DNA of 40,690 nucleotides, from contig CALMUD010000164.1 in assembly GCA_937872735.1 (NCBI GenBank), positions 1 through 40,690 on the forward strand, written 5' to 3'. A model generated the notes under the pieces. The model was not told the DNA's origin. It searched no databases and saw only the letters and a program-made list of their open reading frames with translations. The translations under genes were made by a program, and so were the position numbers. Positions 24,546 through 29,163 of the stretch are shown here, in pieces. This DNA comes from an uncultured Bacteroidales bacterium (lineage in GTDB: Bacteria; Bacteroidota; Bacteroidia; Bacteroidales; Paludibacteraceae). Position 1 is the first letter of the stretch. Each line of letters starts with the position of its first letter.

Positions 24546-25574
<1,029 letters not shown>

Positions 25575-25611: not shown

Positions 25612-25657
25612 TGAAGTTCAATATAAAACATCAGGCTGATTGTTCTACCTGATGTTT
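25612..25657 (-). terminator. Probable terminator of the small lipoprotein pair
   Basis: AAACATCAGG (25626-25635) pairs perfectly with CCTGATGTTT (25648-25657); on the minus strand TTTATATT follows. The stem overlaps the stop codon of the downstream micro-lipoprotein gene. The T-tail is imperfect, so some read-through into gapA is possible. Confidence 0.6.
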
Positions 25658-25771
25658 GGGAGCAATGTTGCCATAGCTGTTTTTGAAACATTTGCATTCA
25701 GACTTGCAACTGCTCATACCTGCTATTGCCAGCATCACCATTACCAATATGTTGAACATTCTACGCATCAT
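25631..25771 (-). CDS. Micro-lipoprotein 2 (46 residues), CKS-type
   Basis: Read by hand on the minus strand: ATGATGCGTAGA at its start gives MMRRMFNILVMVMLAIAG, then the lipobox GMSSC (Cys 22), then a 24-residue mature peptide CKSECKCFKNSYGNIAPKHQ and VEQSA, ending TGA at 25633-25631. It is therefore a signal peptide plus a very short Cys-rich peptide, presumably anchored by lipid in the outer or inner membrane. The start is 9 bases after the stop of the similar gene at 25781. No function is known to me. Confidence 0.68.
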   Translation of the reverse strand: MMRRMFNILVMVMLAIAGMSSCKSECKCFKNSYGNIAPKHQVEQSA

Positions 25772-25780
25772 TCGCGTCCG

Positions 25781-25924
25781 TTATGCCAATTCAGAAACTT
25801 CAGATTTTTCTACTTCGCCATAGTTGCGTTGTACACCTCCGTATCCAGGACATGTCTGTGATTTGCATGCACTAAACAAGGCTGCACAGATGGCAGCGAC
25901 GATAATCAGTTTTATTGCTTTCAT
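25781..25924 (-). CDS. Micro-lipoprotein 1 (47 residues), CKS-type
   Basis: Minus-strand ATG at 25924 begins MKAIKLIIVAAICAALFSAC; the lipobox LFSAC puts the lipidated Cys at residue 20. The mature 28-residue peptide starts CKSQTCPGYGGVQRNYGEVE and ends in SEVSELA before TAA. It shares CKS-x(1-2)-C, a central NYG/SYG-like block and a Val-Glu-rich tail with the following gene, so the two look like ancient duplicates. A -7 element at 25967-25974 is suitably placed. Confidence 0.7.
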   Translation of the reverse strand: MKAIKLIIVAAICAALFSACKSQTCPGYGGVQRNYGEVEKSEVSELA

Positions 25925-25966: not shown

Positions 25967-25974
25967 CAAAAATA
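25967..25974 (-). promoter_or_regulatory. Putative -7 element for the micro-lipoprotein genes
   Basis: Minus-strand TATTTTTG matches TAnnTTTG, 43 bases before the start codon. No -33 box seen. Confidence 0.4.
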
Positions 25975-26026: not shown

Positions 26027-27229
26027 TCATGCAGTCCTCTTTTCTGTGTCGTTTGCATTGTTTTTGTAAATCCATGCGGCGCTTAATGCAATCTCAATGA
26101 GCATGATTGGGGCAAAGGCTCCAGCGTAGGCTTGTGGCAACCATAAATAGCCGCTCAATGCTGTCAAATTGCTTGCTGCTATTAATCCGAATAGGTAGAA
26201 ATTGATTTTTCGGAGTTTCTTTATCCATATTGTCAGGACGGGCAGCAACAGCAGCGGGTTGCACCACAATAGGTTGTAGTTGGGATATACGCAAGGATGC
26301 ACGGAAAAGAAGGAAAGAAAAAATACCAATATACCTGTTGTTCCCAGCAAGCCGAATATCAGACTGTAAAACCAGCTGTCTTTTTTGCCAGTCTTGTAGT
26401 AATAGCCTATATGCAAAGTGGTCATTGCAAATATTATCCAAAAAAGCACCATAGGAGTCACATAATCGAATAGACTTTTACTTGGCGCTATTGTTTTGGG
26501 AGTATTCAGTTGCCGGTAGCTTTTTACCAGAGGCTGTATGCTATCGCCTTTCACTATTTTGGCTTGGCTGTATGCTTTCATCATCTCCATGGGGATGAAT
26601 AGTCTGTCTTTATTGCTCATTACCTTATCGGTAGGACTTCCCAGGCAAATGTCAATGCCGAAGGCGTACCATGGCGATGTCTTTAGCAACTGGTGAATGA
26701 CGTCGCGGAATGTTTCGGTGCTGTGTACGGTGGGGTATATGATGGTGCCTGTGGTATGAGTTTTTACCATCTCTCTTGCCCTTGTGGCGCAATTGTCGAA
26801 GAAAAAGTTGTATCGGTAGTATCGGTTTTCAGGCTCATAGTTGACAAGCAGAGCGCTGAACAGTGCCTCTTTTTCATCAGGTGTCAGGTTCAGTTCCTGT
26901 TCGTAATAGGCAGCATTCTTTTCGTCACGAGTCTCGCTGAGTGCGTCTTCATAGCTGCAAGTGCCGAGGCGGTAGTCAGTTTCCCCTTTTACAAACTTCA
27001 CGATAAACCCATCTTGAAAGGTGAAAATGCCGTAATTGAATACTTCGTCCAAACCCAGGGTGGGGCTGCATACCCTGATGGCAGTATGCCCCCATTTGGT
27101 AAATATGGCTTCGTCACTTGGACCACTGGTGAGTATGCTGATTTTTGTGTCTGGAGGCAGCATCCCGGCCTTGGCTATTGCCACTGCTGACAGTATGGTC
27201 AGCAACAAGGTGATTATTCTTTTTTTCAT
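26027..27229 (-). CDS. DUF4105 (Lnb N-terminal-like) membrane protein
   Basis: This protein has 400 residues from ATG 27229 (MKKRIITLLLTILSAVAIAKA, a signal peptide). Residues about 30-185 form the DUF4105/Lnb-type extracytoplasmic domain: ISILTSGPSDEAIFTKWGHTAIRV, then FNYGIFTFQDGFIVKFVKGETDYRLG, and YRYNFFFDNCATRAREMV with a likely catalytic-type His/Cys pair in a papain-like fold (inference). Five hydrophobic helices follow from about residue 255 to the end. The family's role is not known; a cell-envelope peptidase or transpeptidase-like activity has been suggested by fold similarity. The frame stays open 27 codons further upstream, but the promoter -7 box (27253-27260) lies there, so that extension is rejected. 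Confidence 0.87.
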   Translation of the reverse strand: MKKRIITLLLTILSAVAIAKAGMLPPDTKISILTSGPSDEAIFTKWGHTAIRVCSPTLGLDEVFNYGIFTFQDGFIVKFVKGETDYRLGTCSYEDALSETRDEKNAAYYEQELNLTPDEKEALFSALLVNYEPENRYYRYNFFFDNCATRAREMVKTHTTGTIIYPTVHSTETFRDVIHQLLKTSPWYAFGIDICLGSPTDKVMSNKDRLFIPMEMMKAYSQAKIVKGDSIQPLVKSYRQLNTPKTIAPSKSLFDYVTPMVLFWIIFAMTTLHIGYYYKTGKKDSWFYSLIFGLLGTTGILVFFLSFFSVHPCVYPNYNLLWCNPLLLLPVLTIWIKKLRKINFYLFGLIAASNLTALSGYLWLPQAYAGAFAPIMLIEIALSAAWIYKNNANDTEKRTA

Positions 27230-27306: not shown

Positions 27307-29163
27307 TCAATCCGCCTGCTTTGCTATTTTCCTGATTAGATTTTTCCCGATATTTGTGTTTGGTACTTTTGTTTTAAACCATTTATGTAGGGGCAGGTCT
27401 ATGCCAGTTCCATTCATATAATTATAGGTGGCAAGACTTAGTCCTGCACCGATTTTATCGGAGTCATAGTCCAGTTCCTCTTCATATTCTACCTCATTGT
27501 TGCTGAATGGATTTGTATTCAGACGGACACGTTTTACCCCGTAATTTTCGGGATGTTGTCCCGATGGACTGTGGAGGGTCATGGCATATCGGTGCCAGAA
27601 GGCAGACTGCACCAACCCTTCTTCAAAGAGTTGGCGTACCACTTCGAGAGCGTCAATGCACTCTTGTAGAGATTCTGTGGGAAATCCGTACATCAGATAG
27701 GCGTGTACCATAATTCCCGCGTCCGTCAGATGTTTCATGGCCATGGTAGTCTGTTCAATGGTAACTCCCTTGTGCATCAATTCCAGCACACGGTTGGATG
27801 CCACTTCCAGACCGCCGGAAACAGCCACACAGCCAGAATCGGCGAGGGATTCGCATAATTCTTTGTTATACGATTTGTCGAATCTGATATTTCCCCAGTA
27901 GCTGGTGGCGATTTGTCGTTTCTTTATCTCATTAGCCACTTCGTGCAGCAATCTGGGGGGCATGGCCTCATCGGTGAAGTGAAATCCGCTTTCGCCAGTC
28001 TGTTTCATGATGCTTTCCATTCGGTCTACCACTATCTGGGCCGAAGGGGCGTCATATCGTTTGATGTAGTCGAGAGTTACATCGCAGAATGCGCATTTGG
28101 CCCAATAGCAGCCGTGTGCCATCACCATCTTGTTCCATTTTCCGCTCGACCATAGCGTTTGCATAGGGTTTGACACTTCGGCCATTGACAGGTACTGGTC
28201 CATTTTCAGCCCATCAAAGTCGGGAGTTCCTATCTCACAGTTGCGTATGTTCTTATTGTCATTGCCGCTGTATGCTATTTTTCCATTCTCAATATAATAG
28301 GTACGGATTAGTTCGTCTTTTTTCGCTTTTCCTTCCAAATAATTGCAAACTTGTGTCAATGGCAATTCCCCGTCATCGAGGGTGATGGTGTCGATGAATC
28401 TGAATATGCGGGAGTCGCTTATTTGTCGTAGTTCTGTGTTGGGATAACCACCACCTATCGTCACATGTATTTCCGGATGATTTTTTTTTATGTATTGTCC
28501 GCAGCGCAGGGCGGCATATAGGCAGCCGGGAAATGGTACCGAAAACCCAATTGCCTGAGGGGTGCATTGGGTTATTTTATCTTCCAACAATTCTGTCATC
28601 CATTGGTCGGTCAGGGTGTAGGACTGTTCCAAGGCTTTTTCTATAGTATCGAAAGTGGGTGCGTATGTTCCAAGATGTTCTGCATATCGCACCAAATCAA
28701 AGTGGGAGTCGACGGTCTCGCGAATGTAGTCCGCAATGTCTTCAATAAAAAGTGTTGCCAGGTATTTGGCCGTATCGGTTGTCCCAGCTGCTCCAAAAGC
28801 CCATTCGGTATCACACATGTTGGCAAATCGGGGTCCCTCGGGCAGAAGGTTGTGGCTGGCTATGCGGCTGGCTATTGTCTGATCTTTGCCTTGCAGAAAT
28901 CTTATGACAGTCTCTACGCAGTTCTCGTAATCGGCTCTTGCCTCATACATAAAAGATTGTCCGTCATTCTTCTTAAGGGGAGCTGAAAAATCGAAAATTT
29001 TAGTCAGTCCATTTCGTGTATAGATGCGGTTGACCAGTTCAATGCCGAGGTCCATTTGCTCGGTAGGGTGTCCGTGAGTCTGCAAATATCCCTTCAATAC
29101 GGTTGTGGCGGGATAAGGTGTGTTTAGTTGGGTCAGCGGCGGGGTAATCAACAGTACTTTCAT
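27307..29163 (-). CDS. B12-binding domain radical SAM protein
   Basis: This is a 618-residue cytoplasmic protein. An N-terminal cobalamin-binding-like domain (MKVLLITPPLTQLNTPYPATTVLKGYL to about residue 280, with IGFSVPFPGCLYAALRCGQYI and VTIGGGYPN) precedes a radical SAM barrel (about 340-570). The cluster cysteines in HGCYWAKCAFCD are C352, C357 and C360, giving C-x4-C-x2-C rather than the usual C-x3-C-x2-C. GGLEVASNRVLELMHKGVT and AYLMYGFPTES are typical of the B12-radical SAM superfamily (methylases and methylthiotransferases among others). The substrate is unknown. It overlaps maf by 4 bases (ATGA), so both share a transcript. Confidence 0.88.
   Translation of the reverse strand: MKVLLITPPLTQLNTPYPATTVLKGYLQTHGHPTEQMDLGIELVNRIYTRNGLTKIFDFSAPLKKNDGQSFMYEARADYENCVETVIRFLQGKDQTIASRIASHNLLPEGPRFANMCDTEWAFGAAGTTDTAKYLATLFIEDIADYIRETVDSHFDLVRYAEHLGTYAPTFDTIEKALEQSYTLTDQWMTELLEDKITQCTPQAIGFSVPFPGCLYAALRCGQYIKKNHPEIHVTIGGGYPNTELRQISDSRIFRFIDTITLDDGELPLTQVCNYLEGKAKKDELIRTYYIENGKIAYSGNDNKNIRNCEIGTPDFDGLKMDQYLSMAEVSNPMQTLWSSGKWNKMVMAHGCYWAKCAFCDVTLDYIKRYDAPSAQIVVDRMESIMKQTGESGFHFTDEAMPPRLLHEVANEIKKRQIATSYWGNIRFDKSYNKELCESLADSGCVAVSGGLEVASNRVLELMHKGVTIEQTTMAMKHLTDAGIMVHAYLMYGFPTESLQECIDALEVVRQLFEEGLVQSAFWHRYAMTLHSPSGQHPENYGVKRVRLNTNPFSNNEVEYEEELDYDSDKIGAGLSLATYNYMNGTGIDLPLHKWFKTKVPNTNIGKNLIRKIAKQAD

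What the first reader, a model, noticed from the sequence alone, without database searches (positions are those of the whole stretch)
25631..25924. Tandem pair of tiny Cys-rich lipoproteins upstream of gapA
Two ORFs of 47 and 46 codons, 9 bases apart, each carry a lipoprotein signal and mature peptides starting CKSQTC and CKSECKC with a shared YG block. Short length would hide them from many gene callers. They could be envelope toxins, metal binders or signal lipopeptides; none of this is proven.
Basis: partly seen in the sequence, partly recalled or inferred. Interest (0 to 1): 0.6.

Follow-up and report, generated by a model that had tools for sequence, protein, structure and literature searches.

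The report
Paired mini-lipoproteins of a Bacteroidota-wide family
Two tiny genes beside a sugar-metabolism gene make very small lipid-anchored peptides; they are real, have been conserved by selection, and belong to an overlooked family found across the Bacteroidota, but what they do in the cell envelope is still unknown.

Summary
Window 25781-25924 (-) encodes 47 aa (lipo1) and 25631-25771 (-) encodes 46 aa (lipo2), 9 bases apart, each with a lipoprotein signal, between lnb (lipoprotein N-acyltransferase) and gapA. Both frames are under purifying selection, and the pair occurs in all 61 Paludibacteraceae loci read (these include overlapping retrievals; 26 distinct lipo1 sequences). gapA is the next gene wherever the contig continues. 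A conserved TAnnTTTG promoter box precedes lipo1 (24 of 26; about 1 expected). lipo1 and lipo2 are paralogs. One genus carries a single gene combining their motifs, and in another the mature lipo2 is only 8-9 residues. lipo1 belongs to a wider, unannotated Bacteroidota family of about 35-47 aa lipoproteins, C-x(3-7)-CP[AG]Y(G), with no Pfam or NCBIfam model and no PDB homolog. Elsewhere in Bacteroidales the gene usually precedes an uncharacterised ~255-aa predicted outer-membrane barrel ('c1', absent from the window's family) and/or gapA. Toxin and leader-peptide readings fit poorly; metal or thiol chemistry is open. Best guess: periplasm-facing, outer-membrane-anchored mini-lipoproteins whose short conserved peptide docks on an envelope protein, in the manner of LptM. 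The identity is solid; the function is inferred.

The parts
25781..25924 (-). lipo1, 47-aa prolipoprotein; mature CKSQTCPGYGGVQRNYGEVEKSEVSELA; member of the CP[AG]YG mini-lipoprotein family
   Evidence: conserved CK...CPGYG in 15 aligned members; purifying selection
25865..25876 (-). lipobox of lipo1 (F-S-A-C; Cys20 is the lipidation site)
   Evidence: sequence; Cys20 invariant in alignment A5
25631..25771 (-). lipo2, 46-aa prolipoprotein, paralog of lipo1; mature CKSECKCFKNSYGNIAPKHQVEQSA
   Evidence: CKS-C-C invariant in 15 members; purifying selection; paralogy
25706..25717 (-). lipobox of lipo2 (M-S-S-C; Cys22 is the lipidation site)
   Evidence: sequence; Cys22 invariant in alignment A4
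25967..25974 (-). TATTTTTG, Bacteroidetes-type -7 promoter box (TAnnTTTG) 50 nt upstream of the lipo1 start
   Evidence: present in 24 of 26 distinct lipo1 loci, 1.05 expected from dinucleotide shuffles
25626..25657 (-). hairpin overlapping the lipo2 stop codon, possible attenuator or weak terminator before gapA in this genome only
   Evidence: -14.6 kcal/mol, z = -2.4; not conserved in the genus; not a consensus terminator
24546..25562 (-). gapA, glyceraldehyde-3-phosphate dehydrogenase, next gene downstream
   Evidence: TIGR01534, PF02800 and PF00044; next gene in 27 of 27 family loci with sequence downstream
26027..27229 (-). Lnb-type lipoprotein N-acyltransferase, next gene upstream
   Evidence: PF13387 and PF25221 above cut-off; NF051878 best model but below its equivalog cut-off; immediately upstream in 24 of 32 family loci

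Best explanation
lipo1 and lipo2 are genuine, constitutively retained mini-lipoproteins of the cell envelope. Shown by sequence: each is a signal peptide with a lipobox followed by a short conserved peptide; both are under purifying selection; both follow a conserved promoter box; they are paralogs; lipo1 belongs to a Bacteroidota-wide family C-x(3-7)-CP[AG]Y(G). Inferred: they are diacylated by Lgt, cut by LspA, N-acylated by Lnb, carried to the outer membrane by the Lol pathway and left facing the periplasm, since they lack the acidic surface-export signal. Inferred, and the committed guess: the membrane-proximal CPxYG (lipo1) or CKSxCxC (lipo2) block docks on an envelope protein and helps its assembly or stability, in the manner of LptM on LptD. 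In most Bacteroidales the candidate partner is the adjacent ~255-aa predicted outer-membrane barrel c1. In the window's family c1 was not found, the lipoprotein has duplicated, and the partner is unknown.
For: Coding and selection. Pair retained and syntenic. Promoter. Paralogy: plus the single-gene genus g15 with CKSGCGCPGGAGYG. Family breadth: order and other orders of the phylum. Neighbour c1 is single-copy per genome in 66 of 119 Bacteroidales genera. The lipoprotein lies directly upstream of c1 on the same strand in 46 of those 66: 25 by matching coordinates, and 21 by reading 40 upstream stretches (one spurious hit removed). Conservation is concentrated in the first ~12 mature residues, and in one genus only 8-9 mature residues remain, which suits a docking peptide better than a folded domain. 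No acidic export signal of the form C-X-K-(D/E)2 or SDDDD (PMC5080379). LptM is a precedent for a small lipoprotein that assists assembly of an outer-membrane barrel complex (PMC10567701).
Against: No direct evidence of expression, lipidation, location or a partner. c1 was found in none of 120 genomes searched in the window's family (the same profile scored in 66 of 119), so c1 cannot be the only partner. Neighbours differ between orders, as for an autonomous gene. c1 being a barrel is inferred from its signal peptide and sequence pattern only: no Pfam, NCBIfam or PDB match. Export signals have not been tested in this family.
Confidence: 0.35

Rival explanations
1. Thiol or metal function: the invariant non-lipidated Cys (CP in lipo1, CxC in lipo2) binds a metal or haem, or takes part in disulfide exchange at the membrane.
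For: The second Cys is invariant in 35 of 35 lipo1-family members, and both extra Cys are invariant in 15 of 15 lipo2. In genus g27 lipo2 is reduced to CKSGCGCF or CKSSSCGCF, keeping essentially only the Cys motif. One class-level family (f121) has the gene next to a protein that reads like YtxJ (reading by eye).
Against: One Cys in lipo1 is a poor metal site on its own; no metal-transport or redox gene is consistently adjacent; the equally conserved PAYG after the Cys suggests more than thiol chemistry.
Confidence: 0.25
2. Entericidin-like tandem lipoprotein toxin and antidote, or another envelope toxin.
For: Tandem pair of about 45-aa lipoproteins resembles the ecnA-ecnB layout (own knowledge).
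Against: No entericidin family match in Pfam; a single weak NCBIfam hit by one family member (E = 0.041), most likely the signal peptide. Single-copy, syntenic, purified by selection across genera, unlike sporadic toxin loci. Most relatives in other families are single genes with no mate.
Confidence: 0.05
3. Leader peptides that regulate translation or transcription of gapA rather than functional proteins.
For: gapA is the next gene in 27 of 27 family loci and in several other families; a hairpin overlaps the lipo2 stop in the window.
Against: Lipobox, signal peptide and mature motif are conserved with low pN/pS; most relatives outside the window's family are not directly before gapA; the hairpin is not conserved in the genus.
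Confidence: 0.06
4. Accessory factors or model substrates of Lnb, the adjacent lipoprotein N-acyltransferase.
For: lnb lies immediately upstream in 24 of 32 family loci, and the products are lipoproteins.
Against: lnb is absent from that position in genus g19 and in the other families of the order, and the pair has its own promoter box.
Confidence: 0.08

Closest known systems
LptM (YifL), Enterobacteriaceae mini-lipoprotein of the LPS translocon (PMC10567701)
   Same: Small lipoprotein; proposed to work through a short peptide docking on an outer-membrane barrel assembly.
   Different: No sequence family match above cut-off (NF047847: one member, E = 0.024); different phylum and motif; partner unknown here.
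Entericidins EcnA/EcnB
   Same: Tandem genes for lipoproteins of about 40-48 aa (own knowledge).
   Different: No family match; vertical single-copy conservation; most relatives have no mate.
PG1828-family lipoprotein (NF050142)
   Same: Small Bacteroidota lipoprotein, 59-position model.
   Different: Matches mostly confined to the signal-peptide region and far below the cut-off (at most 22 against 50 bits).
Surface-exposed Bacteroidota lipoproteins such as BamH-K (PMC12578637)
   Same: Lipoproteins associated with outer-membrane barrels in the same phylum.
   Different: BamH-K are much larger proteins carrying acidic residues near the N-terminus; the matches here are signal-peptide only.

Membership tests
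CP[AG]YG mini-lipoproteins of Bacteroidota (defined here) | About 35-47 aa, lipobox Cys, then 3-7 residues, then CP[AG]Y(G) | tested here: met
   lipo1: C20-KSQT-C25PGYG; found by profile in order and phylum
CP[AG]YG mini-lipoproteins of Bacteroidota (defined here) | lipo2 is a member by descent | tested here: met
   hhalign lipo1 against lipo2 profiles E = 5.8e-14 (signal peptide included); mature-only shuffles z of about 2-6 in 10 of the 11 full-length pairs tested; combined-motif gene in g15; but lipo2 lacks the CP[AG]YG string itself
Lipoprotein (Lgt/LspA substrate) | Basic n-region, hydrophobic core, lipobox ending in Cys | tested here: met
   Sequence inspection; Cys invariant in all aligned members
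Lipoprotein (Lgt/LspA substrate) | Lipidation in the cell | not testable with these tools
   needs mass spectrometry or globomycin
Surface-exported lipoprotein (LES) | C-X-K-(D/E)2 or S-D-rich stretch after the Cys | tested here: not met
   CKSQTC and CKSECK lack an acidic cluster; signal definition from PMC5080379
Entericidin | Match to an entericidin family model | tested here: not met
   no Pfam match for either window protein; one weak NCBIfam hit by one relative, E = 0.041
LptM | Match to NF047847 | tested here: not met
   one relative at E = 0.024 only; none for the window proteins
Lnb (upstream gene) | Lnb_N and 5TMH_Lnb domains | tested here: met
   PF13387 79.6 bits and PF25221 90.7 bits, above cut-off; NF051878 307 of 550 bits, below equivalog cut-off

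The most novel reading that the evidence does not exclude
A phylum-wide, previously undescribed class of mini-lipoproteins whose mature part can shrink to 8-9 residues acts as a docking or assembly subunit of an uncharacterised outer-membrane barrel system in Bacteroidota; in Paludibacteraceae it has become an obligate two-peptide pair.
Probability: 0.25. Interest if true: 0.75.

Novelty: new variant of a known kind. Interest (0 to 1): 0.5.

Why it matters
Bacteroidota dominate animal guts and build their outer membrane with machinery that differs from that of E. coli. A tiny lipoprotein family kept by selection across the phylum, missing from the family libraries and usually paired with an uncharacterised barrel gene, is a direct handle on envelope components that annotation has overlooked. 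A mature lipopeptide of 8-9 residues would be among the smallest lipoproteins known (own knowledge, not checked). The question becomes testable by deleting or tagging one small gene in a culturable relative.

Tried and rejected
(1) NCBIfam hits to BamK, BamJ and PG1828 looked exciting, but cover essentially the signal-peptide region and are far below cut-off. (2) A RiPP reading, from the B12-binding radical SAM gene upstream of lnb: that gene is next to lnb only in the window and one other locus, so dropped. (3) c1 as the window pair's partner: c1 was not found in the window's family. (4) The hairpin before gapA as a conserved attenuator: not conserved in the genus. (5) PDB searches for the lipoprotein and c1 profiles: nothing credible. 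(6) PHROGs: only a weak lipoprotein match, E = 0.0085, to lipo1. (7) Literature: no paper found under the motif string; no small-protein or ribosome-profiling study of this family found; the primary Lnb paper is not held.

Full report
WHAT IS THERE. On the minus strand the window carries, in this order, lnb (26027-27229), lipo1 (25781-25924), lipo2 (25631-25771) and gapA (24546-25562). lipo1 and lipo2 are 47 and 46 aa, separated by 9 bases; each has a basic start, a hydrophobic core and a lipobox (FSAC, MSSC). The predicted mature peptides are CKSQTCPGYGGVQRNYGEVEKSEVSELA and CKSECKCFKNSYGNIAPKHQVEQSA. The upstream gene has both Lnb domains above the Pfam cut-offs, and the NCBIfam Lnb model is its best match although below that model's strict cut-off; Lnb is the enzyme that adds the third acyl chain to lipoproteins in Bacteroidota (PMC13103446).

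IS IT REAL. Four of five other genomes of the genus have both genes in tandem in the same place; the fifth, 71% complete, gave no match. Across 61 Paludibacteraceae loci with lipo1 (overlapping retrievals included; 26 distinct nucleotide sequences), all 61 have lipo2 directly downstream on the same strand. Pooled pN/pS in four genera is 0.21, 0.10, 0.20 and 0.20 for lipo1 and 0.45, 0.18, 0.41 and 0.35 for lipo2; the same number and type of changes placed at random give 0.67-0.83, and no null replicate of 200 reached the observed value in any of the eight tests. Pairs share ancestry, so this is a test of coding selection, not a precise dN/dS; synonymous sites are near saturation for lipo2 in two genera.

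EXPRESSION UNIT. A TAnnTTTG box, the known Bacteroidetes -7 element (own knowledge), lies 32-64 nt upstream of lipo1 in 24 of 26 distinct loci, against about 1 expected from dinucleotide shuffles. So the pair probably has its own promoter, separate from lnb. Several loci also have such a box between lipo2 and gapA. In the window a hairpin (-14.6 kcal/mol, z -2.4) overlaps the lipo2 stop; it is not conserved.

NEIGHBOURHOOD IN THE FAMILY. Of 32 Paludibacteraceae loci tabulated, gapA is the next gene in all 27 that have sequence downstream, and lnb is immediately upstream in 24. lnb is missing from that position in genus g19, so gapA is the steadier neighbour. Named relatives are mostly metagenome assemblies from herbivore guts, among them Candidatus Physcocola equi. 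Its contig has the same length, 104,704, as contig G001:C1 of a genome in the window's genus, so the window's organism is probably a Physcocola-like Paludibacteraceae bacterium.

PARALOGY AND MINIMAL FORM. The lipo1 and lipo2 profiles align over their length with E = 5.8e-14; part of that comes from the signal peptide, but mature parts alone beat shuffles kept identical at CK in 10 of the 11 full-length pairs tested (p of 0.034 or less). In genus g15 one gene carries both motifs, CKSGCGCPGGAGYG; in one of those loci (L194) antisense gapA start sequence can be read next to it. In genus g27 the mature lipo2 is only CKSGCGCF or CKSSSCGCF and its start usually overlaps the end of lipo1.

WIDER FAMILY. 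Profiles find the same kind of gene across Bacteroidales, typically MKK...SSCKSxxxCPAYGExxxxxEQ, 40-47 aa, and in other orders of the class, for example CSNKLCPAYGSYPNHR. Raw genome tallies at the thresholds used include many signal-peptide-only matches in long frames, so I count only the short frames that were read. No Pfam or NCBIfam model covers them and no solved structure matches. Tandem pairs recur outside the window's family (L105, L129, L135, L202, L203, L222).

A CANDIDATE PARTNER ELSEWHERE. Outside Paludibacteraceae the gene is most often followed on the same strand by c1, about 255 aa with a signal peptide and a strand-rich pattern that suggests an outer-membrane barrel. c1 has no Pfam, NCBIfam or PDB match. 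It is present once per genome in 66 of 119 Bacteroidales genera. In 46 of those 66 a CPxY-type mini-lipoprotein lies just upstream: 25 by comparing the coordinates by hand, and 21 from 40 upstream stretches read (its count of 22 includes one spurious frame). In four loci the order is lipoprotein-c1-gapA, and in four more lipoprotein-gapA. c1 was not found in 120 genomes of the window's family. Thus the gapA linkage of lipo1 looks ancestral and c1 was lost or never gained there.

MECHANISM. Shown: real genes, lipoprotein architecture, selection, shared descent, promoter box. Inferred from established pathways: Lgt, LspA and Lnb processing and Lol transport. Without the acidic export signal (PMC5080379) they should face the periplasm. 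With so few residues after the lipid, conserved mostly within the first dozen, a docking peptide is more likely than an enzyme or a fold. LptM (PMC10567701) shows how such a mini-lipoprotein can work. I give this 0.35. Thiol or metal chemistry at the invariant second Cys is the main rival (0.25). Leader peptide, toxin and Lnb-accessory readings are each below 0.1.

VERDICT. The function is not established.

Noticed in passing
L104:5131-5961, L115:4231-4989 and similar (alignment A6): c1: single-copy ~255-aa predicted outer-membrane barrel family in about half of the Bacteroidales genera sampled, with no Pfam, NCBIfam or PDB match, usually directly downstream of a CPAYG mini-lipoprotein.
   Followed up: partly
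L031:1622-1717, L040:1377-1472, L033:1622-1723: In genus g27 the lipo2 gene predicts a mature lipopeptide of only 8-9 residues (CKSGCGCF or CKSSSCGCF), with its start overlapping the end of lipo1.
   Followed up: partly
L191-L195 (genus g15): A single mini-lipoprotein that combines both motifs, CKSGCGCPGGAGYG...NA or close variants; gapA start sequence is readable next to it in L194.
   Followed up: partly
L129, L135, L203: Tandem pairs in other families, one CPAY and one CPVY mini-lipoprotein.
   Followed up: no
window 27307-29163 (-): B12-binding radical SAM protein upstream of lnb, resembling RiPP C-methyltransferases below cut-off; next to lnb only in the window and L073.
   Followed up: partly
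L143-L149: Outside the order, in family f121, the mini-lipoprotein lies between genes that read by eye as ribH and a YtxJ-like protein.
   Followed up: no
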